Shown: positions 123 to 12,576 of the stretch, one piece after another
Layout of the letters: each line of letters begins with the position of its first letter
Position numbering within the stretch: position 1 is the first letter of the stretch
Assembly (NCBI GenBank): GCA_001873115.1
Contig: MNYK01000033.1
Location: 1,913-37,887, forward strand
Direction of reading: 5' to 3'
DNA: 35,975 nt
Origin: Desulfobacterales bacterium CG2_30_60_27
GTDB taxonomy: Bacteria; Desulfobacterota; Desulfobulbia; Desulfobulbales; CG2-30-60-27
The notes under the pieces: generated by a model
Databases searched by the model: none
Seen by the model: only the letters and a program-made list of their open reading frames with translations
What the model was told of the DNA's origin: nothing
Program-made: the position numbers and the translations under genes

Positions 123-410
123 ATGCCCGCAAAAACCGTTGGCATCCGTGAAGCCAAGGCCAATCTCAGCAAATATCTCCAGACCGTCCGCCAGGGCGCC
201 GAGATCATCCTTACCGATCGCGGCCGGCCGGTGGGGAAAATAGTACCCATCCAGCCGGAAGAACTCCCCCTGGCGGCCCGGCTGCGGCAGCTTGAGGAAA
301 AGGGGCTAATCGAACTCCGCGTACCCCGAAAGGCCCGGTTCGCCCCCATTCCGCTGCCGGACGGACTGGCCCAACGCCTGCTCCAGGAGGACAGGGGCCA
401 TGACCGATAA
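123..410 (+). CDS. Phd/YefM-family antitoxin
   Basis: This 95-aa protein is the antitoxin of a type II toxin-antitoxin pair. The N-terminal half has the Phd/YefM pattern: 'VGIREAKANLSKYL' followed by a 'G..I.LTDRGRPVGKIVPI' strand, the fold that dimerises and binds operator DNA in this family. The C-terminal part would wrap the toxin. The start at 123 has a GAGG ribosome-binding site 7 bases upstream. The stop overlaps the toxin start by 11 bases (400-410), which implies translational coupling. By family behaviour the protein should repress its own promoter at 54-83. Family assignment is confident; the exact subfamily is not. Confidence 0.9.
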   Translation: MPAKTVGIREAKANLSKYLQTVRQGAEIILTDRGRPVGKIVPIQPEELPLAARLRQLEEKGLIELRVPRKARFAPIPLPDGLAQRLLQEDRGHDR

Positions 411-849
411 GCACCCGGGCGCCTTGTACTGGGACGCCTCGGCCGTACTCTCGCTGCTGTTCAAAGACTTTCACAGCGATTCCGCCGCGACCTGGGCGCA
501 CGGCGGCGCGGTTCATCTCATCTCCACCCTGGCCTGTGCGGAAACCAGTGCGGTCATCGCCCGCCTGCAACGAGACCAGGCGGTTACCGATGTCCTCGCC
601 CAGTCCGCCAGGAACGCTCTCGCCTCCGGGCCCTGGCGCCGCACCACTGTTCAGCCGGACTGGGAAAAAATCCATTCCCTGGCAACAAGCTGGCCCCTGC
701 GCGGCGCCGACCTCTGGCACCTGGCCTGCGCCAAGAGCCTGCAACAGCACCTGCCGGAACTCCACCTGCTCACCTTTGACAACAGGTTGCACGAGGCCGC
801 CCTGGGGGAAGGCCTGATCCATGCCGGCCCGATGCGCGGGAAGGCGTAG
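400..849 (+). CDS. vapC: PIN-domain toxin (VapC family)
   Basis: This 149-aa PIN-domain protein is the probable toxin of the upstream antitoxin. VapC toxins are Mg-dependent ribonucleases that usually cut tRNA or rRNA. The acidic quartet can be placed at Asp12 ('YWDASAVLSLLF'), Glu48 ('CAETSAV'), Asp104 ('RGADLWHLACA') and Asp127 ('LTFDNRL'), so the active site looks intact. Length is normal for the family. It is translationally coupled to the antitoxin through the overlap at 400-410. The RNA target cannot be read from sequence. It runs convergently toward higBA, and a short GC-rich repeat lies between them. Confidence 0.9.
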   Translation: MTDKHPGALYWDASAVLSLLFKDFHSDSAATWAHGGAVHLISTLACAETSAVIARLQRDQAVTDVLAQSARNALASGPWRRTTVQPDWEKIHSLATSWPLRGADLWHLACAKSLQQHLPELHLLTFDNRLHEAALGEGLIHAGPMRGKA

Positions 850-855
850 TCCAAA

Positions 856-898
856 GCCCGGATTCCGAACCCCGAACCCCGGATACCGGGCACCGAAC
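856..898. repeat. Short CCGG-rich intergenic repeat, copy A
   Basis: A run of near-repeating units of the form CCGGAT, CCGAAC, CCCGAAC, CCGGATACCGGGCACCG lies immediately after vapC. A similar run lies after rlmH (about 26000-26070). It is probably a dispersed intergenic repeat. It may form weak hairpins but has no T-run. Confidence 0.5.
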
Positions 899-959
899 AT
901 AGTTATTTGCTACTCTCGACTCGTGATGGATACGACCTAAGAGGCCTCGCTCGGTTCCT

Positions 960-1259
960 TTACGCCGCGACCGGGATGATCTCCTGTTCGATGCGTTTGG
1001 CGTTTGCAATCTCCGCCACCCGCAGGTCGTATGCCGCCTGCAAATTCAGCCATGAGCGGGCATCGCCGCCAAAGTAACGCGCCAGGCGCATGGCCGTATC
1101 CGCCGAAATACCGCGCCGCTCCCGGACAATATCGTTGATGCGCGGCGCCGGCACGTTGAGCGCCTTGGACAGCGCGTTGGCGCTTAAGCCCAGCGGCACC
1201 AGATATTCCTCCCGCAGGATCTCGCCGGGATGTACCGGCCGCATGCCATTCTTGAACAT
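960..1259 (-). CDS. higA: HigA-family antitoxin (XRE-type HTH)
   Basis: This 99-aa antitoxin belongs to the HigA addiction-module family. The opening 'MRPVHPGEILREEYLVPLGLS' is characteristic, followed by an XRE helix-turn-helix ('SANALSKALNVPAPRINDIV') and 'GISADTAMRLARYFG'. The C-terminal helix ('SWLNLQAAYDLRVAE') matches the family. It follows the toxin gene by 12 bases, the usual higB-higA order with the toxin first. In this family the antitoxin binds the promoter palindrome and represses the pair. The palindrome at 1569-1578 is the likely target. Confidence in the family is high. Confidence 0.93.
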   Translation of the reverse strand: MFKNGMRPVHPGEILREEYLVPLGLSANALSKALNVPAPRINDIVRERRGISADTAMRLARYFGGDARSWLNLQAAYDLRVAEIANAKRIEQEIIPVAA

Positions 1260-1271
1260 AGCAGTTCTCCG

Positions 1272-1550
1272 TCAGTGGTAGTCCACGATCTCGACGTCTT
1301 CCGGGCCATTCTCCGTCCACCGGAAACACACGCGGAACTGGTTGTTCACGCGGATGCTGTACTGCCCGGCGCGGTCGCCCTGCAATGCTTCCAGCCGATT
1401 GCCAGGCGGCGAGCGCAAAAACTCCAGCGTTTGCGTCGCATCGAGCATGACCAGCTTGCGTGCCGCGACATTGGCAATGGTGGCAAACCGCTTGCACTTG
1501 CCGGTGGTGAACAAAACTTGCGTATCGGCGCAACGGAAGCTGTTGATCAT
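1272..1550 (-). CDS. higB: HigB-family toxin (RelE superfamily)
   Basis: This 92-aa protein is a RelE/HigB-fold ribonuclease toxin that would cleave mRNA on the ribosome. Visible family marks are 'MINSFRCADTQVLFTTGK' at the N-terminus, 'LEALQGDRAGQYSIRVNNQFRV' in the middle and 'WTENGPEDVEIVDYH' at the end, closely following the HigB pattern. It lies directly upstream of higA and shares its promoter. The ATG at 1550 has no ribosome-binding site upstream and sits about 7 bases from the predicted -10 box, so the message may be leaderless. Length is typical. Confidence 0.92.
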   Translation of the reverse strand: MINSFRCADTQVLFTTGKCKRFATIANVAARKLVMLDATQTLEFLRSPPGNRLEALQGDRAGQYSIRVNNQFRVCFRWTENGPEDVEIVDYH

Positions 1551-1556
1551 GCTGCA

Positions 1557-1585
1557 ATCATATAACGCTTAACGTTAAACATCAA
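1557..1585 (-). promoter_or_regulatory. higBA promoter with palindromic operator
   Basis: On the minus strand TTGATG (1580-1585) and TATGAT (1557-1562) are exactly 17 bases apart. The perfect palindrome TTAACGTTAA (1569-1578) lies in the spacer, where bound HigA would block RNA polymerase. The assignment rests on motif match and position. Confidence 0.7.
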
Positions 1586-1634
1586 GGATGAAAGACGATA
1601 TCAGCGTGTCTTGGGCGCACAGCTAAGCTGGTGT

Positions 1635-3164
1635 TCATGATAACCCGAGAATGGCCTTTACCTTCTGGACCTTATCCCACTGTTTTTTGGAGCATTGTTT
1701 CTTTGTCCAATTTTTTTCAGCCTGCCAGCGTTCCATGATGGCTGCGGCTAATTTTTTTTGGTTCTCCGTCGAGGCTGTAGCAACCCTTGGCCAGATATTC
1801 GGCATGGGGTCTTTGGCGTCATTAGAGGCCAGACGTAAAGCCATGTCCTCTTTGCGAATGCAGGCCAGGTCTTTTTCTGATTGGGTCATGCCGTCCCATC
1901 TCTCCTGCTGTCCGGCCTTTGCCCTTTCCTCCTCGGCCTGGCGCATAGCCTCCTGCCTGGCCTTTTCCTGGGCGGCTTCCCGCTGAATAAGGAACTCTTC
2001 ATCCTGCTGTCGTTTTTCCGCTCCCAGGCGCTGATGTTCAGTATGAATATCGGCGCAAATCGCCTGGTGCTGCTCCTGCATGATGGCGGCTTCCGGGGCG
2101 GACAGGGGCTTTAACTCAACCCAGCCAAAGGGGCGCAAGGTGTGCATGACCTTTGGCTTACTGGAATCGGCGGCCAGCCAGATGGTGTTGGCGTGGTCCT
2201 GAGTCTGTTTGCCTTTGCCCTGCATGATTCTGATCTGTCGTCGTCCTTCAACCGTGCAGCATTCGGCCCCGGAGTGGCGACCGATTCGAGCGAAACAGGG
2301 TGGCATGGCGGATGGGTTTATTCCTAAGCCGCTAAGCTCACGGTCTTCGCGGCTTTTTTCTTTGCCAAAGAATGTTTGTACGGCCTTACTGATCTCGGCC
2401 ATGGTCACTGGCTGCTTGATCCCGGCCTTGGCGTGTGGAGTGATGACCGTGATCGAGCCCAGGAACGTCACTCCTGGTTCGATGACCTCCAGAATCTGAT
2501 AGACCCGTTCTTTCTCCTCCACCTTTTTCGATGGCCACTTGCGACAGTCCACGCCATAAACGATTTTCCTTGGCACCGTCGCAGTTGGCATGAAGTCCGA
2601 GACCTTAACCAACCGGAAGGGGTCGGTTTCAAACTGCGAAAATTTCAACAAATCCTTTTCCATCTTTTTGGCCTCACGGGCATTATAGGGGGGGAGGGTC
2701 TTGCCGTTATTCCGCAGGTTGAGAATGGCGGTGCGCAGCGCCCCCTTAATCGAAGAGCCGGGCAGATAGGGCAGGCCGGTCATCTGTAAACTGGCGGTGC
2801 GGCTGATCGAAAAATTATTCAGATTTTGCTGCACATCTTTTGGCGCCAGATTCAAGGTCTTGTTGTAGTGCTCGACAAACCCGGGACAAACCGCCACCCG
2901 CTCACCATCCAGAACAACGCCGACTTGGCTCCGCATGAACTTGTAGATGTCCAAGAGTGACGGCACCGTGCCTTGCAAACAGATACGGGAAAACTTTTCG
3001 CGGTCGGCCTTGCTGAGCGCGGCCACAAAACGGAACGGATCGAAATGAATTAATTCGCTCTTCTTGTCGTCAATGGCAAACGCTGTCGGCTCATAGACCT
3101 GGTCGCAGCCGACATGAACCGGGGCAAGCGTCGTGATTTGAAAAAAGGTGGTTTCAGGCTGCAT
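1635..3164 (-). CDS. csm5: Type III-A CRISPR effector subunit Csm5, with long C-terminal extension
   Basis: This 509-aa RAMP protein would cap the backbone of the Csm complex near the crRNA 3' end. Family marks are 'TTLAPVHVGC' near the N-terminus, 'FSISRTASLQMTGLPYLPGSSIKGALRTAI' across residues 118-147, and 'HTLRPFGWVEL' near residue 341. I chose the ATG at 3164 because GGAGG lies 10 bases upstream; the ATG at 3188 lies upstream of that site and inside csm4. Csm4's stop (3167-3169) sits just ahead of this start. Residues about 357-425 are Glu/Gln/Arg/Lys-rich and look like coiled coil. Residues 426-509 form a further basic, Trp- and Lys-rich tail. The RAMP body seems to end by about 355, so this extension is unusual. 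Confidence 0.9.
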   Translation of the reverse strand: MQPETTFFQITTLAPVHVGCDQVYEPTAFAIDDKKSELIHFDPFRFVAALSKADREKFSRICLQGTVPSLLDIYKFMRSQVGVVLDGERVAVCPGFVEHYNKTLNLAPKDVQQNLNNFSISRTASLQMTGLPYLPGSSIKGALRTAILNLRNNGKTLPPYNAREAKKMEKDLLKFSQFETDPFRLVKVSDFMPTATVPRKIVYGVDCRKWPSKKVEEKERVYQILEVIEPGVTFLGSITVITPHAKAGIKQPVTMAEISKAVQTFFGKEKSREDRELSGLGINPSAMPPCFARIGRHSGAECCTVEGRRQIRIMQGKGKQTQDHANTIWLAADSSKPKVMHTLRPFGWVELKPLSAPEAAIMQEQHQAICADIHTEHQRLGAEKRQQDEEFLIQREAAQEKARQEAMRQAEEERAKAGQQERWDGMTQSEKDLACIRKEDMALRLASNDAKDPMPNIWPRVATASTENQKKLAAAIMERWQAEKNWTKKQCSKKQWDKVQKVKAILGLS

Positions 3165-3166
3165 AG

Positions 3167-4195
3167 TCAATGAACCTCCAGGCGGCATGGCAGATACATC
3201 GAATAGCCCTGGCCCACGGTACGTGGGTCGGCCAGGGAAATGCCGGTTACGGCTCGACCGAGATAAGGATTGTTAAAGGCGTCAGCCGATTGCGGCAAAA
3301 AGACCGCCCCTTCATCGGCCATGACAATGGGTGCCTTAAAAGGTTTGTCGGTTAACACCAGGCGGTCGCCGTGCTTGCCGAAGCGGGTGAACGGAGAAAA
3401 GAATGACTGGCGGTAAGCGCCCTGCTCCGGCACCGCAGGCCCCAGGGTGTAACAGGCGTTGGCATTAGGCAGGGATGGCAGCGGCAATTCTTGCCATTCG
3501 CCTACCATGAACCGGCCCAGTCCGCTGCTGGCGTCTCGGCCGAAGCCGAAGGCCCCGATATTTTTAAACGCCTGCAACACCCGGTCAATATCGGTGGCTG
3601 CGGGGTCGAGCAGGCAGAAGATGGTCAACTCGGTTTCCGGTAGATAGCATTGATTTTCATGGACAAAGGGGGCGAAGCACTCGCCGGTGGTTTGGGTCAG
3701 ACGATTGATGGTGTTGTGGATGCGGCGGTCAAGCGCCATAAAATTTCTGACTTGGCCAAGCTGCCGGGCAGTTGTCGGAGAGACAAGCTTACGGTACCGT
3801 TCAAACAGGGCTGTATCGTCGATAAGGTGATCTTCCTTAAGGTGCAGAGCGAGAGTCTCCTCGATCAGCAACCATTTCTTTTTTTTGTTGGCCTTGCGCT
3901 CGATAAGTCGTGCCAGCCCATCGTCCTTGTCCTTGGCCGGAAACATTATGGCCATGGACAGGTCAGGCCTTTTGACGGCATAAACCGTCTGGTCGTTTTC
4001 CACCAAACGCGGCCAGGCGGTGGAAAACACTGCAAAAGGTTTAGTCGGATACAGTTCAATCCAGCGATCAAGGCCGCCGTTCAGGGTGGCGGGCTGGTTG
4101 GCCGCCTGCCAGCAGAAGTGACCGAAGATGGTGTCTCCCTTCAAGGGTGTTCCAAAGGCGGTCCGGGGCTTGATGGTGATGGCGTAAAGTTTCAC
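3167..4195 (-). CDS. csm4: Type III-A CRISPR effector subunit Csm4
   Basis: This 342-aa RAMP protein holds the 5' handle of the crRNA and contacts Cas10 in the Csm complex. The N-terminal 'TAFGTPLKGDTIFGHFCW' (about residues 12-29) is the conserved Csm4 loop. 'IGAFGFGRDASSGLGRF' is the glycine-rich RAMP loop. 'HNTINRLTQTTGECFAPF' also fits the family. It starts with GTG at 4195 behind GGGAGA. It lies 26 bases after the embedded ParE-type toxin gene and just upstream of csm5, so it appears to be in one transcript with both. Length is normal. Confidence 0.92.
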   Translation of the reverse strand: MKLYAITIKPRTAFGTPLKGDTIFGHFCWQAANQPATLNGGLDRWIELYPTKPFAVFSTAWPRLVENDQTVYAVKRPDLSMAIMFPAKDKDDGLARLIERKANKKKKWLLIEETLALHLKEDHLIDDTALFERYRKLVSPTTARQLGQVRNFMALDRRIHNTINRLTQTTGECFAPFVHENQCYLPETELTIFCLLDPAATDIDRVLQAFKNIGAFGFGRDASSGLGRFMVGEWQELPLPSLPNANACYTLGPAVPEQGAYRQSFFSPFTRFGKHGDRLVLTDKPFKAPIVMADEGAVFLPQSADAFNNPYLGRAVTGISLADPRTVGQGYSMYLPCRLEVH

Positions 4196-4221: not shown

Positions 4222-4503
4222 TTAGGGCAACTTCTTAGGGTCTTGGCGGTTATCGAATACAGCATGAACGACGATTCCCTCGGCTTCTATTGTGAAAAAG
4301 ATGGAAAAAGGAAATCGCCTGATGACGCACCTACGAAAGCAGGAATGGACGACTTGGCAACTTTCCGGAAAGCTGATGATGTGCCTGATGGCCACCTCAA
4401 GGCAATCCAGAAATTCAAAACCAAGACCTGGCCGCTGTCTTTCGTACCACGAAAAAGCCGACTCGGTTTCAAACTTGGCGCGTCCGGTATAGATGATCTT
4501 CAT
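4222..4503 (-). CDS. RelE/ParE-family toxin embedded in the csm operon
   Basis: This 93-aa protein belongs to the RelE/ParE toxin superfamily. The pattern 'FETESAFSWYERQRPGLGFEFLDCLEVAIRHI' followed by 'FPESCQVV', 'RRCVIRRFPFSIFFTIE' and 'VVHAVFDNRQDPKKLP' is typical of ParE-like toxins paired with the short addiction-module antitoxin upstream. Family members poison gyrase or cleave mRNA; which applies here cannot be told. It overlaps the antitoxin gene by 4 bases and lies 26 bases before csm4, in the same direction as all csm genes. It appears full length, so it is not visibly a decayed remnant. Confidence 0.9.
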   Translation of the reverse strand: MKIIYTGRAKFETESAFSWYERQRPGLGFEFLDCLEVAIRHIISFPESCQVVHSCFRRCVIRRFPFSIFFTIEAEGIVVHAVFDNRQDPKKLP

Positions 4504-4727
4504 CGGACAGGATTCCTCAATGCGGCATGGACGTCCTGCCAGTCATGGAGTGTCGCCTTGCCTGCCTTGTATTCGGCGTATCGCTGATCGAGTTCTTGTC
4601 GTTGCCATTCCGGCAAGGGCAGTTCTGCATTGCTGCGTGCGATGGAATCCCAGATGTCCTCAACCAGGAGAATTTTTTCCGGAAGTGCCAGGTTATCAAT
4701 TTCCTGAATCAGGTTGTTTCGTTCCAC
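4500..4727 (-). CDS. Addiction-module antitoxin (TIGR02574-like), partner of the ParE-type toxin
   Basis: This 75-aa acidic protein has the form of the 'putative addiction module component' family. The N-terminal helices carry 'LALPEKILLVEDIWDSIA', followed by 'LPEWQRQELDQRYAEYKAGK' and a short tail ending 'HDWQDV'. The family acts as antitoxin to RelE/ParE toxins. It begins 24 bases after the csm3 stop and overlaps the toxin gene by 4 bases. No separate promoter is obvious in the 24-base gap, so expression probably depends on the csm transcript. Confidence 0.9.
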   Translation of the reverse strand: MERNNLIQEIDNLALPEKILLVEDIWDSIARSNAELPLPEWQRQELDQRYAEYKAGKATLHDWQDVHAALRNPVR

Positions 4728-4751: not shown

Positions 4752-5474
4752 TTAATTGTTCTTTCCCGCAAAGAGAGTGACATCGTTAAACTGTTGTTGC
4801 AGCGCCGCATCGTCAAACTCAAAGCGCACCCGACCATATCCCCGGCTGCCGCTGCCGCCCAAGGCGTCATATTCCAGCATCTTCAAACCATCCAACAGAA
4901 ATTTTTCCAGGCCGGAATCCTGACCGTAGACTTTGAGCGAAATGGCGAAGTCAAAAGTCAGTCCGGACGGCACCCGTTCGGTAAAACGGGGATGCTCTGC
5001 AGTGCCATTGATCCGGTTGATAGTGTTTTCCGATTTAACCTCGGTAAAGGGCAAATTCTGGCCCCGTAGTTCATCGCGGGAGCACTCAGCCAGGTTGCAA
5101 TCGGCAAAGGACAATCTGGTTGGGCCGAGTTTGGCTGCGGCCTCACCGTCAGCGCCGGAGGAGCCGAACAATTTCAGGATGGCCTCGGCCTGCTCTCTTT
5201 GTGTGGGCGAAAGCTCCTGGCGGTCAAGGACTTTGGCGCTCAAGGCAGTACCATTATTGCCGAAGAGGCCGATCAGGCCGCTGCGCATCTCCAGGAGAGA
5301 CCGGACCTTGCCTTTCAGAGAAGAGCCGGGGATATATGGTTCCAGGGTGTGCGGGTGTTTGACCACCGGGTTGTCGGTGCCGCCGATGTGCATCTCCAGG
5401 TCACCGGCCCCGATATGGAGGCCGCTCTGCAGGATGATTCGGCCCTTGATCTGTTTGATATCGTTCAATTGCAT
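4752..5474 (-). CDS. csm3: Type III-A CRISPR effector subunit Csm3 (target-RNA nuclease backbone)
   Basis: This 240-aa RAMP subunit would form the repeating backbone of the Csm complex and cut target RNA at 6-nt intervals. 'GLHIGAGDLEMHIGGTDNPV' (about residues 18-37) contains Asp34, which aligns with the catalytic Asp of known Csm3 proteins, so slicing should be intact. 'PYIPGSSLKGKVRSLLE' follows, and 'LGGSGSRGYGRVRFEF' is the C-terminal glycine-rich loop. I chose the ATG at 5474 because GGGAGG lies 7 bases upstream; the ATG at 5492 would overlap csm2 and lacks such a site. It is directly followed by the embedded TA pair instead of csm4. Confidence 0.94.
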   Translation of the reverse strand: MQLNDIKQIKGRIILQSGLHIGAGDLEMHIGGTDNPVVKHPHTLEPYIPGSSLKGKVRSLLEMRSGLIGLFGNNGTALSAKVLDRQELSPTQREQAEAILKLFGSSGADGEAAAKLGPTRLSFADCNLAECSRDELRGQNLPFTEVKSENTINRINGTAEHPRFTERVPSGLTFDFAISLKVYGQDSGLEKFLLDGLKMLEYDALGGSGSRGYGRVRFEFDDAALQQQFNDVTLFAGKNN

Positions 5475-5488
5475 GGATGTTCCTCCCG

Positions 5489-5875
5489 TCAATTAGGTCC
5501 GTGAATTTTATAAAAGGCAGTAAAGGCCTCAAACAGATTGGCAAAGACCTGCAAGTCCTCTTTGCGCTTGATCTGCTCGATGCCGGTTTTCATGAAGCCG
5601 ACAAACTCATCGGTCACTAATTTCCGGCCCTTGGCATAGGCGACTTTGGCCAGCAGCATATGGACATGGGGCAGGATTTGATCCCAGTCGGTTTGCGCGG
5701 CGCGAGACATGGTGTTCAAGCGAACGATTTCATCAAAAAAGCGTCGTAACTGCGTGCCCTTGTTGACGTTGCTTCCCTTGCTCCCGATGTCCTTGGCGAG
5801 TTTCTCGGCCATATCCGAAAAAAGCGTGGGGTCAATCACCTTTTTGACTGGATCCTTCCATAAGACATATTGCAT
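5489..5875 (-). CDS. csm2: Type III-A CRISPR effector small subunit Csm2
   Basis: This 128-aa helical protein is the small (Cas11-type) subunit that lines the crRNA-target duplex in the Csm complex. 'KGTQLRRFFDEIV' near residues 46-58 and 'VTDEFVGFMKTGIEQIK' are recognisable Csm2 segments. The ATG at 5875 has AGGAGG 7 bases upstream and lies 20 bases after the cas10 stop. A longer reading frame to 5992 would run into cas10 and is not supported. It precedes csm3 by 14 bases in the standard csm1-csm2-csm3 order. Confidence 0.92.
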   Translation of the reverse strand: MQYVLWKDPVKKVIDPTLFSDMAEKLAKDIGSKGSNVNKGTQLRRFFDEIVRLNTMSRAAQTDWDQILPHVHMLLAKVAYAKGRKLVTDEFVGFMKTGIEQIKRKEDLQVFANLFEAFTAFYKIHGPN

Positions 5876-5895
5876 TCGTATCCTCCTTTTTTTGC

Positions 5896-8523
5896 TTAGA
5901 GCGACCGTTGATTGTAGAGCACGTCCCACAAGGGGATGCGAACCCCGGCATCGAAGCTGTTGAGCCAGTCCACAAAAGCAACCAGCCGGCACCGGGCGGC
6001 ATTACGCTCCGCGCCTTTCAACTCCTTATTCATGTTTCTTTCAATGTTGTAGACAAACAAAGCCCGCCACTTGAGACAGGACATGGCATCGAGAAGCGAG
6101 GCGCCAAGCCCGGAAAGCCTTTTTTCCTGCTCGCGCATCGCCAGAAATTCATTGAAGCGGTAAAACGAGCCGACATGGATTAGCCCTTCCTGTAGCCAGG
6201 CGCGAATTTCCGTTCGGCAGTCAAGGAGACAGTCAAAGTTATTCCACTTCACGGTGGCGTTAAAGGCGGTGATGCTATTTCGTCCGGCGTTCTTGGCAGC
6301 GGCCAGGGACTCCTCGGCATCCTTGGCCAACCGTTCCACCGGCACATGTGGTTTATGTACCGTTATACCCGCCGAAAAGTGAATGTCGGGGTTTTGACAG
6401 CAATACGCCGCAAACCGCTGGCGAAGGTGGGCCGCCAAGTCGGCCAAACGGTTCCAGGGGCCGATCAAAAAGAGGTCATCGCCGCCGGCAAAGACGGTGT
6501 ACACATCCCGGAACTCCTCCGTATTGGCCAACAAGTGCGGCAGATAGAGGGTGAAGAAAAAATTGAGTTGTCGGCTCAAGGTGGCGATCCGGGAAATGGT
6601 GTAACGATCCTCTTGCAGGCCATAGCCAAACAGGGCGCCCAAATTATCAATATCCGCCTTGAGCACGCCAATGGCGGCTATACCTTGATGCTTCTTACCA
6701 TCCGGGTTTTGGTTCAAGGCCTTACTGGCGATATGGGCAAAGGTCTTGGGACGGCCTTCCTTGATATCGTCAACCAGTTCCAGCTTTTTCTCCTCCGATG
6801 CCCTGCCCGCCAAGAGCCGATCGTCATGCTCGTCTTCTGGCCGATACACCGGCACATAGCCATTGATCAAACGGACAGCGGTCTGGTTGTCCAAGGTGCC
6901 ATCCGCCTGGGCGCTCAGGGTGAAGAGATGCAGGAGTTTGCCCTGGCGAGCGGGGTTTGGATGTTCGTCAGACGTGAATGAGACATTATACTTGCCGAAA
7001 ATCGGCATGGTCAAACATTCACGGGCAGGCAACGGGTGGCCGGTTTCCCAGATCGCCAAACGATTGCCCTTGACCAGACTAGTCCCCAGCATGACATGAT
7101 CGCGGCACACCCGGCAGGCCGAGGTATCGCCATGCAGCCAGGCCTTATCCTTTTCCACCGCCGGGTGGGATGGCCTCTTGCCGCAGAGGGGGCAGAGCTT
7201 ACTTGCCAAGTCATTGCGAAAACTTTCAAGATAACCGGGCACCACGCCGCCGTAACGGTCGAGATCAATCTTTGCCCCTTTTCGCTTGTCCATATTGTCG
7301 CAGTGCTTTTGCCAGAGACCGTGAAAACCGCCTCGTAAAAAATTAGCCGGAGAGGCTGGAGTACTGGAAAACCCCATACTGCTTTGGCCCAGGGAGATAT
7401 CGAAAAGCCACTGATTGACCTCTGCCTCCACGTCGCGAGTCGCTACTCTGGAAGCCTCGGTGTTCGGCATCAGCACGGTAAACTTGCCCGCCGCATTCAA
7501 AATAACGGAAAGAAAGGTGAGATCAGCGCGACGGTAGAGCATGTCGGCCGCCAGTTCGGAAAAAAGAGAAACGGCAAAGGAACGCCCCCGGAGCAGCTTG
7601 GATCGGTATCGTTGCGTGTCGCCGCCTCCGGCAAAAATGAAATCCTGAATGCCATAGAAGTCACCGGTGACCAGCAAGAATTTTTCTTCCTGCTCCGTGC
7701 TCACCGCCGTGCTGTTCATGGTGTCGCGGTCAGCATGATACAGATAGATGGCGCTAGCCAGAGCCGCGGTGGTGCGGCAATGGTCATACAGTGAAATATC
7801 ATGTACCACGTTTTTGACGCGTGCCGCTGGGATGGAGGAGGTGTATGTCTGCAGAAGCGAATCAAAATGCTCGGCCCACAGGCTAAGACTATCTTGGGTG
7901 TGCCAGAGGGAGCGGAGCCCTGCGATAAAGGCGTCGAACAATTTCCGATACTCGGCGTCCGCCTCGGCCTTGGTGATTTTCCCTTCCCTTTCAGTTGCCG
8001 GAAAGATGGCAGCGCTGCTCAATGGCGCAAGCGGATAGCGACAGGAAAAGTCTGCTGCAGTGGTAAATTTTCTTTTTTTGCCGGGACTGATGATCTCGAT
8101 CTCTTCCAAGACAGGCAACAGGCGAGTGCTTTTGAACTCCTGGAATGGAATAGAGTCGCCTTTGGCAAAGGTCGCCCGGTCAAGCCCGCTGGAAATGCAG
8201 TCCGCCTCGGTGATAATGCGTTGCATGGCGCTTTCCGGTTTGTGGTGACAGGCCGCCAATTTTTGGAAAGTGTCGCCCGATTCACCCCCGCCCCACTTGG
8301 GATCGTTTAATTTCGTGGGCAGGGACGCTGCCAATTGCTCAATAAAGGCCGCCGTAAACATGGCGTGCTGATGGCTGTACCCGCCGCCGTGATGGGCCGT
8401 CGGCTGAAAAATAGCCTCGTTGTTCTCACGGAAACCTGGTGGCAGCTCAAGGCAGCCTTGCGCGAACTTCCCGATATCGTGCAACAGCCCGGCCAGGGCG
8501 ATTTTCAGAACCGTGTCGTTCAT
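5896..8523 (-). CDS. cas10: Cas10/Csm1, type III-A signature subunit (HD nuclease and cyclic oligoadenylate synthase)
   Basis: This 875-aa protein is the large subunit of the Csm complex. The N-terminal HD domain has 'LLHDIGKF' with His15-Asp16. The first Palm domain carries 'GDFYGIQDFIF'. A zinc ribbon is visible as CPLC (444-447) and CRVC (470-473). The second Palm domain has an intact GGDD at 680-683 ('FAGGDDLFLIG'), the motif that converts ATP to cyclic oligoadenylates in active homologues. Both enzymatic activities therefore look intact. The start ATG at 8523 has GAGAGGG a few bases upstream. The two CARF genes upstream are the expected receivers of its signal. Length is in the upper normal range. 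Confidence 0.96.
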   Translation of the reverse strand: MNDTVLKIALAGLLHDIGKFAQGCLELPPGFRENNEAIFQPTAHHGGGYSHQHAMFTAAFIEQLAASLPTKLNDPKWGGGESGDTFQKLAACHHKPESAMQRIITEADCISSGLDRATFAKGDSIPFQEFKSTRLLPVLEEIEIISPGKKRKFTTAADFSCRYPLAPLSSAAIFPATEREGKITKAEADAEYRKLFDAFIAGLRSLWHTQDSLSLWAEHFDSLLQTYTSSIPAARVKNVVHDISLYDHCRTTAALASAIYLYHADRDTMNSTAVSTEQEEKFLLVTGDFYGIQDFIFAGGGDTQRYRSKLLRGRSFAVSLFSELAADMLYRRADLTFLSVILNAAGKFTVLMPNTEASRVATRDVEAEVNQWLFDISLGQSSMGFSSTPASPANFLRGGFHGLWQKHCDNMDKRKGAKIDLDRYGGVVPGYLESFRNDLASKLCPLCGKRPSHPAVEKDKAWLHGDTSACRVCRDHVMLGTSLVKGNRLAIWETGHPLPARECLTMPIFGKYNVSFTSDEHPNPARQGKLLHLFTLSAQADGTLDNQTAVRLINGYVPVYRPEDEHDDRLLAGRASEEKKLELVDDIKEGRPKTFAHIASKALNQNPDGKKHQGIAAIGVLKADIDNLGALFGYGLQEDRYTISRIATLSRQLNFFFTLYLPHLLANTEEFRDVYTVFAGGDDLFLIGPWNRLADLAAHLRQRFAAYCCQNPDIHFSAGITVHKPHVPVERLAKDAEESLAAAKNAGRNSITAFNATVKWNNFDCLLDCRTEIRAWLQEGLIHVGSFYRFNEFLAMREQEKRLSGLGASLLDAMSCLKWRALFVYNIERNMNKELKGAERNAARCRLVAFVDWLNSFDAGVRIPLWDVLYNQRSL

Positions 8524-8759: not shown

Positions 8760-8987
8760 ATGACCAACATCACCTTGAGCGTTGATGAGACCATTATCAA
8801 AAAAGTCCGCAAGATCGCCATCGAGAAAAATACCTCCCTGACCGCCATGGTCCGGGAATATCTGGAACAGATGGCGGCGCGGGACGGGGCGGAAAAACAG
8901 CGGCGCCTCGAATCGTTGCGCAAAAGCCTTGCCCTCCTGAGCCGGGACATGGGGGGAACGCTCCTGGCGCAGGGAGGAGCTCTATGA
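8760..8987 (+). CDS. Orphan ribbon-helix-helix antitoxin (VapB-like)
   Basis: This 75-aa protein resembles antitoxins that pair with PIN toxins. 'MTNITLSVDETIIKKVRKIA' is a typical ribbon-helix-helix strand and helix, 'NTSLTAMVREYLEQMA' the second helix. The C-terminal 'LRKSLALLSRDMG' would contact a toxin. The start has GGAGGG 7-8 bases upstream and its own promoter. The stop is arranged as ATGA (8984-8987), the usual overlap with a vapC start, but the frame that follows shows no PIN motifs and runs into the 3' end of the csm6-like gene. It is the only plus-strand gene inside the cas cluster. I infer its toxin has been deleted. Confidence 0.75.
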   Translation: MTNITLSVDETIIKKVRKIAIEKNTSLTAMVREYLEQMAARDGAEKQRRLESLRKSLALLSRDMGGTLLAQGGAL

Positions 8988-9053: not shown

Positions 9054-10379
9054 TTACCACCCGCAACAAACTATTGCACCTGTTGCAACATTGCAGGCAC
9101 CTGGCCCTGGGCCAACCGTTTCTTTTGTTCCAGAAAACGCTACATCAAATCTTGGAAAGACTGGCAAGTCCGCAGGGTCAAACAGCTTAAGGGTGAGGAC
9201 AAATTCCCGCAGACTTTGAAAGGCGTTTTGTCCGATACTCTGGAAGCCATGGGCCAGGTAGGAGTCATTTCGTGCCTTTTGGATGTTTTTGAATTTCTGC
9301 TCATGCTGGCTGAAGGTGCGCCCCAGTTCATCGCCCAGGGCCTCCAGCAGCCGGAAGGCCGCTGCCTGGGAAATTTTTATCTGGCCGTCCGGGGCAGCGT
9401 ATCGCTTGATGTATTCAGCACGCACTGTTTCCGGGATACGGGTTCTGTCCACGTTGCTGGTGTCGATGGACCAGGCTGTGACAAGTCGAGCCTGGGCCGC
9501 CATTTCCACCACCCGATAGAGACGGAGCACGGCATCATCGATCTTGCCTTCCTGAAAACGGCGTTCAGCATTGGCATAGAGGTCCAGCAGACACAAACTG
9601 ATGGGGTTCTTCTTTTTGTCTTCCGTTAATTTTTGTAAAAAAGGAAGCAGCTTCAAGGTGGCAAGGGCTGGCTGCCGAAAGAAAATATCGTCGAGCTCGG
9701 CCAGTTCCTCAAGGCGGGCGCGACTAAAGCGCTGCTGCGCCTCCGAGTGCCGGAAGAGATCCCAAAGCTGAAAGCCTTCCACCATAAAGCCGAGCTTCTC
9801 GTAGCGGCTCGGGAAGCGGACATTTTTTCCCTTAAGCCCTGCTATCCGTTCTTGGGCGGCCGTAAACTGAAACTGGTTGAAAAGCAGGGCGATATCCCGC
9901 CTGGCCTCAATCCCCATGATATCCCACGGATTGAGGCTGCGGCGCACCTCTTCGGATCCGTCCTTGACAATGCCTAGCCCTTCCTTGGTTCGCTCCCTGC
10001 CGCCCACATAGGAAAAGGAAAACCCATGAGAAACCGCGGCCAGGGTGAGGGCCGCGGTCATGTTCTTGGTGCCGCCCGTATAATCAACCATCACCTCGCT
10101 GCCGGGGTATCCTTTGGCAAGCACCCGTTGGACCGCCTCTTCAGCCTTACCGTAACAGTGGACAAGGTCATTCACATCATCCACCAGGGTCTGCTCGAAG
10201 GAGGCCAGCCGCCCTGATTTTTCTTTGGCATCCCGGAGGCATTCAGGAATTTTGGCACAGCTTTCCTGCGAGGCCAGAAAGGAGATGAATTCCGGCCCGC
10301 AGGCGCAAATGGATGCCACGATCGGCTCCGTAGTACCGCCTACGGAAATGATCATGGCCTTCTTTTGGTGCTCTGTCAT
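9054..10379 (-). CDS. CARF-HEPN ribonuclease, Csm6-like (TIGR02710 family)
   Basis: This 441-aa protein is an ancillary effector of type III CRISPR immunity. The N-terminal CARF domain has 'IISVGGTTEPIVASI' and the ligand-loop motif 'VDYTGGTKNMTAAL' (DYTGGTK at 99-105), the signature of cyclic oligoadenylate sensors in this family. The C-terminal half is helical and contains 'KARNDSYLAHG' with Arg370-x6-His377, matching the HEPN RNase motif R-x4-6-H. It should cut RNA non-specifically when bound by the Cas10 product. The last ~25 residues are Gly/Ala/Cys-rich, unlike a HEPN terminus, and end next to the orphan antitoxin, which suggests a disturbed 3' end. It lies 34 bases downstream of the NE0113-family gene. 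Confidence 0.88.
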   Translation of the reverse strand: MTEHQKKAMIISVGGTTEPIVASICACGPEFISFLASQESCAKIPECLRDAKEKSGRLASFEQTLVDDVNDLVHCYGKAEEAVQRVLAKGYPGSEVMVDYTGGTKNMTAALTLAAVSHGFSFSYVGGRERTKEGLGIVKDGSEEVRRSLNPWDIMGIEARRDIALLFNQFQFTAAQERIAGLKGKNVRFPSRYEKLGFMVEGFQLWDLFRHSEAQQRFSRARLEELAELDDIFFRQPALATLKLLPFLQKLTEDKKKNPISLCLLDLYANAERRFQEGKIDDAVLRLYRVVEMAAQARLVTAWSIDTSNVDRTRIPETVRAEYIKRYAAPDGQIKISQAAAFRLLEALGDELGRTFSQHEQKFKNIQKARNDSYLAHGFQSIGQNAFQSLREFVLTLKLFDPADLPVFPRFDVAFSGTKETVGPGPGACNVATGAIVCCGW

Positions 10380-10413: not shown

Positions 10414-11529
10414 TCATTCCTCCATCCTGATCCGGCCGCGGTCCAGCATCAGGCCGAAGCGGGTATCCGGTTTGCCGCCGACCGCGGCGATTTCCAGTTC
10501 CTTGACATGGGTTTGGCCAAACCGGCCCAGGATGTCCTGACGTATTTTGGATTTGTAACTGTTGAAGTTTTCGCGTGAGAGCCGGGCGATGCCGGTGTCG
10601 CTCATTTCCTTGAGGCGACAGCCGCCGATGATATGGCGATAGAGTTCGGTGATTTCGTCGTTGCCAAGCGCCTCGGTGGCCTCGATAAAACATGCGGTGC
10701 AATTGTGACAGGGCTGGTCCAGTTTGCAGCGGAGCTTGAGCCCGGTGAAAAAGGCATAGAGGGCCAGGCGGGCCGGATGCATATCGAGCTCAACGGCGCC
10801 GTAAACGATCTTGCCCGCGGCGAGATCCACGGTGAGCAGGCGGGGGGCGTCGCGGACCAGCGACTGCATGAGGTCGGCCGGCGGCCGTGGCCGGTCGAGC
10901 AGGCCGCGGTCCAGCCGGTCGCGGACCGAGACAAAGGGGATGGTGATGAGATGGATGGCGGCGTACCTGGTTTCCTTAAGCACGGGCTCATGCTTGCGGT
11001 CATACAGGGTGAGGCTGACCGACTCCCTGGGCGGGTACCAGAAGTCCGGGCACGACTCGAACTCCGGCGAGACGAGGACATGGTAAATGCGGTCCTGGGG
11101 CCGGCCATAAAGCTGGGCCGCCAGGCTCATGCAGGAGGTCATGGTCTTGCGGCCGCCGGCCACCAGGAAAAATACGGCCGTGCCCGGCTGGCTGGTAAAC
11201 TCAAAGGTCAGGCCAAGGCAGGTTTCGAGGAGGATTTCGTTGTCTTCGTCCGTCACGATGTCGTCAAGCTCGCGGCCATCCGGCCGCTGCAGGACGTGGA
11301 TGTTTTCAGGCCCGAACTGGATGGCGATATCAGGGCAGAATTCTTGGCGGAACTCCGCGAACACCCCGCCCGCCGGGGTCAGGAGGCGAGCGAGAATCTT
11401 CTCCCGCCCCGTCCGGGTGGTGATCACATGGATGGCATCAACCGTGCGGCCTTCGTGCAGAAGGGCGTAGAGGGCCTCGGTGATTACCTGGGGATTGAGC
11501 CCGGCAACCGCAAGCAGGATGTTTTTCAT
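10414..11529 (-). CDS. CRISPR-associated CARF protein, NE0113 family (TIGR02584)
   Basis: This 371-aa protein begins 'MKNILLAVAGLNPQVITEAL', the hallmark of the NE0113 family. The CARF ligand loop is 'FLVAGGRKTMTSCMSLAAQL' (121-140). A tight cysteine group follows at residues 268, 274, 277 and 280, probably a zinc site. The C-terminus ('NFNSYKSKIRQDI' ... 'TRFGLML') looks like a winged helix. Members of this family are annotated as ring nucleases that degrade cyclic oligoadenylate, or as CARF sensors; sequence alone does not decide between them. It starts 9 bases after the cas6 stop, so it is co-transcribed with it. Its base composition is visibly GC-richer than csm1-csm5. Confidence 0.85.
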   Translation of the reverse strand: MKNILLAVAGLNPQVITEALYALLHEGRTVDAIHVITTRTGREKILARLLTPAGGVFAEFRQEFCPDIAIQFGPENIHVLQRPDGRELDDIVTDEDNEILLETCLGLTFEFTSQPGTAVFFLVAGGRKTMTSCMSLAAQLYGRPQDRIYHVLVSPEFESCPDFWYPPRESVSLTLYDRKHEPVLKETRYAAIHLITIPFVSVRDRLDRGLLDRPRPPADLMQSLVRDAPRLLTVDLAAGKIVYGAVELDMHPARLALYAFFTGLKLRCKLDQPCHNCTACFIEATEALGNDEITELYRHIIGGCRLKEMSDTGIARLSRENFNSYKSKIRQDILGRFGQTHVKELEIAAVGGKPDTRFGLMLDRGRIRMEE

Positions 11530-11538
11530 CTGGCGTCT

Positions 11539-12474
11539 TTATATGTGTACCTGAATCTGGCCCAGCCCGAAGGATGTCTGTTTTCCCAGGTGGGTTTTCT
11601 CGCAATATTTCAGCAAGGGAACATATTCATCGAGGTTCCCTTCGTAGCGCAGGGTGCCGAGCAGCCCCCCCATGAGCATGGCTGTCTTTTGTCGGTTACT
11701 GTAGCGTTCCAGCTCGACCCATTGACAGGTACTATGGCCGAGGGTGACATTTTGTGCCCGCCTGACAAGACCAGCATAATCCAGAGCTGGCTCGCCTTCG
11801 CCGTAAGCGTTTTCCAGGGAGGAGATTCTTCTGAGGGCTGCCCTGACCAGCATGTGGAAGGGCAGGGAGGTTTGAAAGTGGTTGTCCTGTTTCAAGCGCA
11901 GGGGGGTGATGAGGTCGATGGCCAGTGAGGTTGCCCCGCCATGGGCGGCAGGCTGGACGGACAAGGGAATAAGGGGGCTGGCATGGCGCAGGACTTTCGT
12001 GTCGGCGCGGTAAATCTCTTCGCCATCCCTGGTGACGGCAACCAGGGAGAACCTGCCAAGGCCATTGGCGCTGCTCCGGCCCAGGCCCAACCCGCCAAGG
12101 TTCTCGATCGCATACACGATGTGCGGCAGATACTCGTTGGCCTTGCCGAAAAGGCCAAGGCCGAATTCGAATTCGTCGCCAGCCGCGAATTCCTGCCGGG
12201 CGTCTTGGGGCACCATGAAAACATAGGGGTGGGGCCGGGCCGCGATGCGGGCGGCATCTTCCTGTCCGGCGCGGGAGGCGGGTTGGGTTTCAAAGATGAC
12301 GGCGTAGGCGCAACTGGAGCCGAGCAGGCAATCCTGGCAGGTCTGGCGTCTGAGGGCGCAAGCGACCTTCCGCAAGGCATGGCCAAAACCGCCCCGCAGC
12401 GTGGAACCTTTAAAGGCCGGCAGATGCGCGGGCGTCTGCAAGCGGCAGTGACAATGATAGGTTCCGACTAACAT
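11539..12474 (-). CDS. cas6: Cas6 pre-crRNA processing endoribonuclease (RAMP)
   Basis: This protein of about 311 aa would cut CRISPR repeat RNA to release crRNAs for the Csm complex. The N-terminal part has 'PAFKGSTLRGGFGHALR' and a cysteine-rich insert ('TCQDCLLGSSCAY'). The middle has 'ENLGGLGLGRSSANGLGRF', and the C-terminus ends in the glycine-rich Cas6 loop 'KQTSFGLGQIQVHI'. The start is uncertain: an in-frame TTG at 12486 gives four more residues, and neither start has a well-placed ribosome-binding site. A Cas6 here implies a repeat array somewhere in the genome, though none is in this window. It leads the block cas6-NE0113-csm6. Confidence 0.88.
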   Translation of the reverse strand: MLVGTYHCHCRLQTPAHLPAFKGSTLRGGFGHALRKVACALRRQTCQDCLLGSSCAYAVIFETQPASRAGQEDAARIAARPHPYVFMVPQDARQEFAAGDEFEFGLGLFGKANEYLPHIVYAIENLGGLGLGRSSANGLGRFSLVAVTRDGEEIYRADTKVLRHASPLIPLSVQPAAHGGATSLAIDLITPLRLKQDNHFQTSLPFHMLVRAALRRISSLENAYGEGEPALDYAGLVRRAQNVTLGHSTCQWVELERYSNRQKTAMLMGGLLGTLRYEGNLDEYVPLLKYCEKTHLGKQTSFGLGQIQVHI

Positions 12475-12576
12475 TCTCCCACTCAAAAGGAAAAAATGGT
12501 TAGAGTCAATAACTTTTTATCATAATTGAAGGCGAAAGCGAACCATGCGAGTTTTTGCGAGTCCGTCACGTTTGTG

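What the first reader, a model, noticed from the sequence alone, without database searches (positions are those of the whole stretch)
4222..4727. Intact toxin-antitoxin pair nested inside the csm effector operon
A ParE-type toxin and its antitoxin sit between csm3 and csm4, in the same direction, with gaps of only 24 and 26 bases and no obvious promoter of their own. Every csm gene around them looks intact. Loss or shut-down of the CRISPR operon would remove the antitoxin and release toxin, so the pair may addict the cell to its type III system. It could also be activated when Csm6-like RNase destroys the shared transcript during infection. The location is seen; the addiction role is inference.
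Basis: partly seen in the sequence, partly recalled or inferred. Interest (0 to 1): 0.75.

Follow-up and report, generated by a model that had tools for sequence, protein, structure and literature searches.

The report
Toxin-antitoxin pair inside CRISPR effector operon
A complete toxin-antitoxin gene pair sits inside the operon for a bacterial RNA-targeting CRISPR complex, and the survey shows that unrelated toxin-antitoxin pairs have entered the same kind of spot several times in distant bacteria, so this is a recurrent arrangement, although what it does for the cell is still unproven.

Summary
A PF09720 antitoxin (4500-4727) and a ParE-fold toxin (4222-4503), joined by a 4-nt ATGA overlap, lie in sense orientation between csm3 and csm4, 24 and 26 nt away. 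Both are intact, and no promoter-like site was found upstream. Cas10, Csm3 and Csm6 keep their active-site motifs.

The arrangement is not unique. Among 190 non-redundant csm3-csm4 junctions, 14 carry a toxin gene and 5 only an antitoxin. Five toxin kinds are involved (ParE, two VapC types, PIN_3, MazF), in three phyla, all sense strand. In Methylococcales the genes overlap or abut (csm3 TAATG vapB, vapC|csm4), leaving almost no room for a promoter. The three other csm junctions together hold one classical pair. Four of the window toxin's closest relatives sit in type III-B operons, between cmr3 and cmr4. The AU test rejects one clade for the type III-nested pairs, so there was more than one entry.

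Best reading: a read-through-transcribed pair that ties cell survival to continued expression of the type III operon. Residence, recurrence and intactness are shown; addiction is inferred. Prior art: vapBC in Sulfolobales type III cassettes with a suggested maintenance role (PMC4390879). I call it a new variant of a known kind.

The parts
4500..4727 (-). antitoxin, PF09720 / TIGR02574 family, 75 aa, GTG start, AGGAGG ribosome-binding site
   Evidence: E=3e-18; TIGR02574 E=8e-16; 12-member alignment; AlphaFold model all-helical, moderate confidence
4222..4503 (-). toxin, RelE/ParE superfamily, ParE-type fold, 93 aa, ATGA overlap with the antitoxin
   Evidence: PF05016 E=9e-6; pLDDT 92.8; best PDB match ParE 3kxe, TM 0.84; E. 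coli RelE about 0.67; relatives 52-63% identical
4752..5474 (-). csm3 (Cas7 backbone subunit), gene upstream of the pair
   Evidence: TIGR02582 E=4e-60; D34 invariant
3167..4195 (-). csm4 (Cas5 group), gene downstream of the pair, GTG start
   Evidence: TIGR01903 E=2e-17
1635..3188 (-). csm5
   Evidence: TIGR01899 E=5e-16
5489..5878 (-). csm2
   Evidence: PF03750 E=2e-19
5896..8523 (-). csm1/cas10 with HD and GGDD motifs
   Evidence: TIGR02578 E=5e-177; motifs
9054..10379 (-). Csm6/Csx1-like CARF-HEPN ribonuclease, R-X6-H present
   Evidence: PF09670 E=2e-40, TIGR02710, motif
10414..11529 (-). CARF protein of the NE0113 family
   Evidence: PF09623 E=6e-60
11539..12486 (-). cas6
   Evidence: PF10040 E=1e-18

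Best explanation
A complete, apparently active type II toxin-antitoxin pair has been built into a type III-A effector operon at the csm3 (Cas7) / csm4 (Cas5) junction and is expressed by read-through from the csm transcript. Shown: position, orientation, intactness, absence of a recognisable promoter, and repeated independent occurrence of the same arrangement in csm and cmr operons. Inferred: because the labile antitoxin and the toxin depend on the same transcript, loss or lasting shut-down of the operon would free the toxin, so the pair stabilises (addicts the cell to) the type III locus. The pair is probably selfish in origin, with maintenance of the operon as the consequence.
For: Gap sizes, ATGA coupling and missing promoter. 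In an 80-locus genome scan seeded only by Csm3, all five csm3-csm4 gaps of 350 nt or more hold a sense-oriented TA pair. In the enlarged set 14 of 190 junctions carry a toxin of five kinds, against 1 of 552 at the other three junctions. By independent events 5 of 6 fall at csm3-csm4 (p=0.005 with four equal junctions, 0.018 with three) and 6 of 6 are sense (p=0.016). In Methylococcales the csm3 stop overlaps or lies a few bases from the vapB start and vapC abuts csm4, so read-through is nearly unavoidable. Nested VapCs group together apart from the sampled free VapCs (bootstrap 88, SH-aLRT 91), and dN is well below dS wherever dS could be estimated. Five antitoxin-only remnants but no toxin-only remnant fit a toxin that was active while nested. 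Four of the window toxin's closest relatives lie between cmr3 and cmr4, and in three of them toxin identity tracks Cmr4 identity.
Against: No transcript or toxicity data. The module is patchy: on the Methylococcales csm tree the VapBC family needs about 8 gains or losses, so operons shed it and survive. No other csm3-csm4 junction in the Desulfobacterota sample carries a TA pair. A promoter inside csm3, or one not of sigma-70 type, is not excluded.
Confidence: 0.5

Rival explanations
1. Passive insertion: TA pairs land in many places, the csm3-csm4 junction tolerates short sense insertions because the two genes are not translationally coupled, and the pair persists by its own addictiveness with no role for or effect on the CRISPR system.
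For: csm4 and csm5 overlap and take almost no insertions, while csm3-csm4 is looser. Other cargo enters csm1-csm2 and csm2-csm3: an IS200-like transposase, a GIY-YIG-like ORF, DUF4160/DUF2442 genes. The pair's patchy distribution. TA modules are common in defence islands, and this locus has two more beside it.
Against: Tolerance does not explain why classical pairs favour csm3-csm4 over csm2-csm3, which is about as loose (1 event). Nor does it explain why the same ParE subfamily entered csm and cmr operons more than once (AU p=0.012 against one clade; binomial p=3e-4 with the window left out, under a rough assumption of 8 type III junctions in 3000 genes).
Confidence: 0.3
2. Accessory effector: during infection, cOA-activated Csm6-type RNases degrade the shared transcript or host mRNA, the labile antitoxin runs out, and the toxin adds a second abortive or dormancy response.
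For: The window has a Csm6-type HEPN RNase with its motif, a second CARF gene and a Card1-like effector beside it. All 14 TA- or antitoxin-bearing loci with enough flank carry a CARF gene, against 21 of 28 without (p=0.075). In phylogenetically independent pairs the association never runs the other way, but significance is not reached. RelE-fold toxins are already used as type III effectors: Cami1 (8phb) appears in the fold search.
Against: The association is weak and partly an effect of sampling. No CARF or other cOA sensor is fused to the nested toxins. Release by transcript decay is hypothetical.
Confidence: 0.2

Closest known systems
vapBC pairs interspersed in Sulfolobales type III cassettes (reviewed in PMC4390879, section 8)
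   Same: Type II TA pairs inside type III effector gene cassettes, with the published suggestion that they help keep the CRISPR system in the population
   Different: Archaeal and vapBC only. Here: bacteria, five toxin kinds including ParE and MazF, a preferred junction (csm3-csm4), and gene overlaps that leave almost no room for a promoter in one lineage
CreTA CRISPR guard modules (PMC9458426, PMC10097628)
   Same: A toxin whose control is tied to an intact CRISPR system, so that loss of the system is punished
   Different: CreTA uses an RNA toxin repressed by the CRISPR effector through a CRISPR-repeat-derived RNA. Here both partners are proteins and no repeats were found in the window
lch, RelE-like gene after cas1 in the Lactococcus pKLM type III-A locus (PMC3519859)
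   Same: A PF05016 toxin-family gene collinear with a bacterial type III-A cas cluster
   Different: At the end of the cluster, no antitoxin reported, on a conjugative plasmid
ParDE toxin-antitoxin complexes (e.g. 3kxe, 8c24)
   Same: Toxin fold (TM 0.84)
   Different: Sequence identity only 15-18%. The antitoxin here is PF09720, modelled all-helical with no ribbon-helix-helix strand, so gyrase poisoning and self-repression cannot be assumed
Cami1 (CARF-RelE) type III effector, 8phb
   Same: A RelE-superfamily toxin in type III immunity
   Different: Cami1 is fused to a CARF sensor; the window toxin is a stand-alone protein held by an antitoxin (distant fold match, TM about 0.59)

Membership tests
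Type II toxin-antitoxin system (RelE/ParE superfamily with PF09720 antitoxin) | Both partners match family profiles above the curated cut-off | tested here: met
   PF05016 26.6 bits against 23; PF09720 65.9 against 23.3
Type II toxin-antitoxin system (RelE/ParE superfamily with PF09720 antitoxin) | Adjacent, co-oriented, overlapping genes with the antitoxin first | tested here: met
   (4-nt overlap)
Type II toxin-antitoxin system (RelE/ParE superfamily with PF09720 antitoxin) | Toxin inhibits growth and antitoxin neutralises it | not testable with these tools
   needs expression in a laboratory strain
Type II toxin-antitoxin system (RelE/ParE superfamily with PF09720 antitoxin) | Own autoregulated promoter upstream | tested here: not met
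   no sigma-70-type site in 150 nt upstream; other promoter types not covered
ParE (gyrase-targeting) toxins | ParE fold | tested here: met
   best PDB match 3kxe, TM 0.84; RelE about 0.67
ParE (gyrase-targeting) toxins | DNA gyrase as target | not testable with these tools
   no biochemical data; target left open
Type III-A (Csm) CRISPR-Cas | cas10/csm1, csm2-csm5 in one operon | tested here: met
Type III-A (Csm) CRISPR-Cas | Cas10 GGDD cyclase motif and Csm6-type CARF-HEPN gene | tested here: met
Type III-A (Csm) CRISPR-Cas | CRISPR array in the locus | tested here: not met
   no array-like repeats in the window; cas1 on another contig
CreTA CRISPR guard | Antitoxin is an RNA flanked by CRISPR-like repeats | tested here: not met
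   protein antitoxin; no repeat families at 4222-4727
TA pairs that stabilise type III cassettes (Sulfolobales vapBC) | TA pair interspersed among type III effector genes | tested here: met
   also csm and cmr loci
TA pairs that stabilise type III cassettes (Sulfolobales vapBC) | Loss of the cassette is penalised by the toxin | not testable with these tools
   needs genetics

The most novel reading that the evidence does not exclude
Nested TA pairs are a functional, repeatedly recruited layer of bacterial type III CRISPR-Cas: a protein-based guard (or reserve effector) that is made only with the effector complex, inserted by preference between the Cas7- and Cas5-type genes of both csm and cmr operons, and set off when the operon's transcript is lost, for example by anti-CRISPR shut-down, deletion or Csm6 collateral RNA decay.
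Probability: 0.33. Interest if true: 0.85.

Novelty: new variant of a known kind. Interest (0 to 1): 0.62.

Why it matters
How costly, often toxic type III CRISPR systems are kept in populations is an open question. The published case of CRISPR addiction by a toxin (CreTA) concerns type I systems with RNA toxins. A recurrent protein TA pair wired into the csm or cmr transcript would be an independent, simple route to the same end, and it gives a directly testable prediction: deleting csm is harmless without the pair and costly with it.

Tried and rejected
1) Chance ORFs: rejected; both proteins have profile hits and families of intact relatives. 2) Decayed insertion: rejected; no stop or frameshift in the window pair, although one close relative of the toxin does have a stop (L003). 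3) CreTA-like RNA guard: rejected; no repeats. 4) All type III-nested ParE pairs descend from one capture: rejected by AU test p=0.012. 5) One vertical inheritance of VapBC in Methylococcales csm loci: not clear; about 8 changes on the csm tree, and the VapC subclades do not follow it, so exchange between loci or repeated loss is likely. 6) Counting TA frequency: the 190-locus set is enriched for Methylococcales because that order was searched after the first hit, so 7% is not a population frequency; the unbiased figure is 5 of 79 junctions with a toxin. 7) Sequence search of the PDB gave no meaningful relative for toxin or antitoxin. 8) Plasmid search: toxin relatives on plasmids are at most 40% identical; plasmid-borne csm3 loci were listed but their junctions not examined. 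9) A first csm tree was discarded because csm4 starts were mis-set and many rows dropped out (repeated).

Full report
WHAT IS THERE. On the minus strand the window carries cas6 (11539-12486), a CARF gene (10414-11529), a Csm6/Csx1-type CARF-HEPN gene (9054-10379), csm1/cas10 (5896-8523), csm2, csm3 (4752-5474), then antitoxin (4500-4727) and toxin (4222-4503), then csm4 (3167-4195) and csm5 (1635-3188). The distances are csm3-24 nt-antitoxin, a 4-nt overlap (ATGA), toxin-26 nt-csm4. Each gene start has a plausible ribosome-binding site in the sequence (AGGAGG before the antitoxin's GTG, GGGAG before csm4's GTG). No sigma-70-type promoter was found in the 150 nt upstream of the antitoxin, and no terminator-like site on that strand between csm3 and csm4. 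Cas10 has HDIGK and GGDD, and Csm6 has R-X6-H.

THE PAIR ITSELF. The antitoxin is PF09720/TIGR02574 and the toxin PF05016. An AlphaFold model of the toxin (pLDDT 92.8) matches ParE structures best (3kxe, TM 0.84) and E. coli RelE less well (about 0.67). The target (gyrase or ribosome) is not decided by this. The antitoxin model is all-helical with no strand (moderate confidence), so there is no sign of a ribbon-helix-helix or AbrB DNA-binding fold. Twelve aligned toxins share 26 invariant positions, all kept in the window.

IS IT UNIQUE? CSM OPERONS. A genome scan seeded only with Csm3 returned 80 loci. In 79 the csm3-csm4 gap could be measured: the median is 9 nt, five gaps are 350 nt or longer, and all five contain a sense-oriented toxin gene with an antitoxin in front. 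Pfam confirms PIN toxins in Methylocaldum sp. 14B and Methylomonas, PIN_3 in Candidatus Jettenia ecosi, and PemK/MazF with a DUF2281-like antitoxin in a betaproteobacterium; the fifth, a Methylococcaceae MAG, is a homologue of the Methylocaldum VapC (73% identical). csm4-csm5 had no gap of 150 nt or more in 76 loci.

The set was then enlarged with the Methylococcaldum-containing order, other orders and the Desulfobacterota phylum, giving 196 non-redundant csm3 loci, 190 with csm3 and csm4. Toxin genes sit in csm3-csm4 in 14: the window (ParE), nine VapBC of one family, two of a second PIN family (L231, L233), one PIN_3 (L099) and one MazF (L118). Five more keep only the antitoxin (L200, L213, L221, L146, L127). 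The other three junctions (552 measured) hold one classical pair, MntA/HepT in L138, plus an IS200-like transposase, a GIY-YIG-like ORF and DUF4160/DUF2442 genes. By independent events, 5 of 6 are at csm3-csm4 (p=0.005 or 0.018) and 6 of 6 are sense (p=0.016). The larger set is enriched for Methylococcales by design, so its frequencies are not population values.

HOW TIGHTLY EMBEDDED. In most VapBC loci the csm3 stop overlaps the vapB start (TAATG or TGATG, with GAGG inside csm3) or lies within 16 nt of it; vapB and vapC overlap by 1 or 4 nt; and vapC ends 0-1 nt before csm4. One locus (L189) has 89 nt before vapB. Csm-nested VapCs group apart from the sampled free VapCs (bootstrap 88, SH-aLRT 91), keep their reading frames at 48-80% identity, and have dN well below dS where dS could be estimated. 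Their spread over the csm tree is patchy (about 8 changes), so they have been lost or exchanged repeatedly. Antitoxin-only remnants (5) without any toxin-only remnant fit a toxin that was active while nested: losing the antitoxin first would be lethal.

CMR OPERONS. Four of the window toxin's closest relatives in its order (L055, L059, L061, L063; 63, 59, 61 and 52% identical) lie with their antitoxin between cmr3 and cmr4, 7-11 nt after cmr3. NCBIfam matches the neighbours to Cmr3 (one of three above the cut-off, the other two slightly below), Cmr4 and Cmr5. Among the Cmr4 loci of the order, these four, the most similar in Cmr4 (67-100% to the query), have the pair; the others do not. Toxin identities track Cmr4 identities among L055, L059 and L061 (0.74/0.72, 0.75/0.69, 0.86/0.78), so pair and operon have travelled together there; L063 is more divergent in the toxin. 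The five type III-nested pairs do not form one clade (AU p=0.012), so this TA subfamily entered type III operons more than once. With the window left out, 2 of 10 lineages in a type III junction has p about 3e-4 under a rough model of 8 junctions in 3000 genes. In both settings the pair lies between a Cas7-type and a Cas5-type gene (csm3/csm4, cmr3/cmr4); that correspondence rests on established Cas nomenclature.

MECHANISM. Shown: intact pair, nested, sense, no recognisable promoter, recurrent and independent. Inferred: co-transcription; release of toxin if the transcript is lost; hence stabilisation of the type III locus (confidence 0.5). Rivals are passive insertion at a tolerant junction (0.3) and an accessory effector set off by Csm6-type RNA decay (0.2). 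All 14 TA- or antitoxin-bearing loci with enough flank have a CARF gene against 21 of 28 others (p=0.075; independent pairs not significant), which leans towards the effector idea without settling it.

WHAT IS KNOWN. The idea is not new in kind: vapBC pairs inside Sulfolobales type III cassettes have been described, with the suggestion that they help maintain the CRISPR system (PMC4390879); a RelE-like gene follows cas1 in a Lactococcus type III-A plasmid locus (PMC3519859); and CreTA guards type I systems with an RNA toxin (PMC9458426, PMC10097628). A 2024 survey of type III effectors did not mention toxins or antitoxins in its main text (PMC11229360), and my literature searches found no report of a preferred csm3-csm4 or cmr3-cmr4 site. 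The library holds only open-licence papers, so this is not proof of absence.

VERDICT. Observation confirmed; addiction reading partly supported; new variant of a known kind; interest 0.62.

Noticed in passing
window 960-1259 and 1272-1550 (-): A higBA-like pair (PF05015 toxin, HTH antitoxin) lies just downstream of csm5, same strand, with a promoter-like site at 1585-1557.
   Followed up: partly
window 123-410 and 400-849 (+): A Phd/YefM antitoxin with a PIN toxin on the opposite strand, a third TA pair beside the csm operon.
   Followed up: partly
window 8760-8987 (+): A lone DUF6364/ribbon-helix-helix antitoxin-like gene between csm1 and the csm6 gene, with no evident toxin.
   Followed up: no
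L315 (contig C114, left of the window) 337-1515 (-) and 1519-2001 (-): A Card1-like CARF-endonuclease gene and a further small ORF with no Pfam hit: the locus goes on beyond the window edge, with four undetermined bases near the boundary.
   Followed up: partly
L191 4298-4846, L198 4643-5004, L241 4939-5464, L107 4721-4990, L109 3723-4025: DUF4160/DUF2442 pairs or a single DUF2442 gene in the csm1-csm2 or csm2-csm3 junctions of distant bacteria; function unknown, possibly another TA-like cargo.
   Followed up: partly
L194 4128-4658, L204 4417-4947: IS200-like (Y1) transposase, probably REP-associated, in the csm1-csm2 junction of Methylococcales loci.
   Followed up: no
L138 4320-4625 and 4615-4992: A nucleotidyltransferase/HepT pair nested between csm2 and csm3 in a Magnetococcales MAG, the one classical TA pair at another csm junction.
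   Followed up: partly
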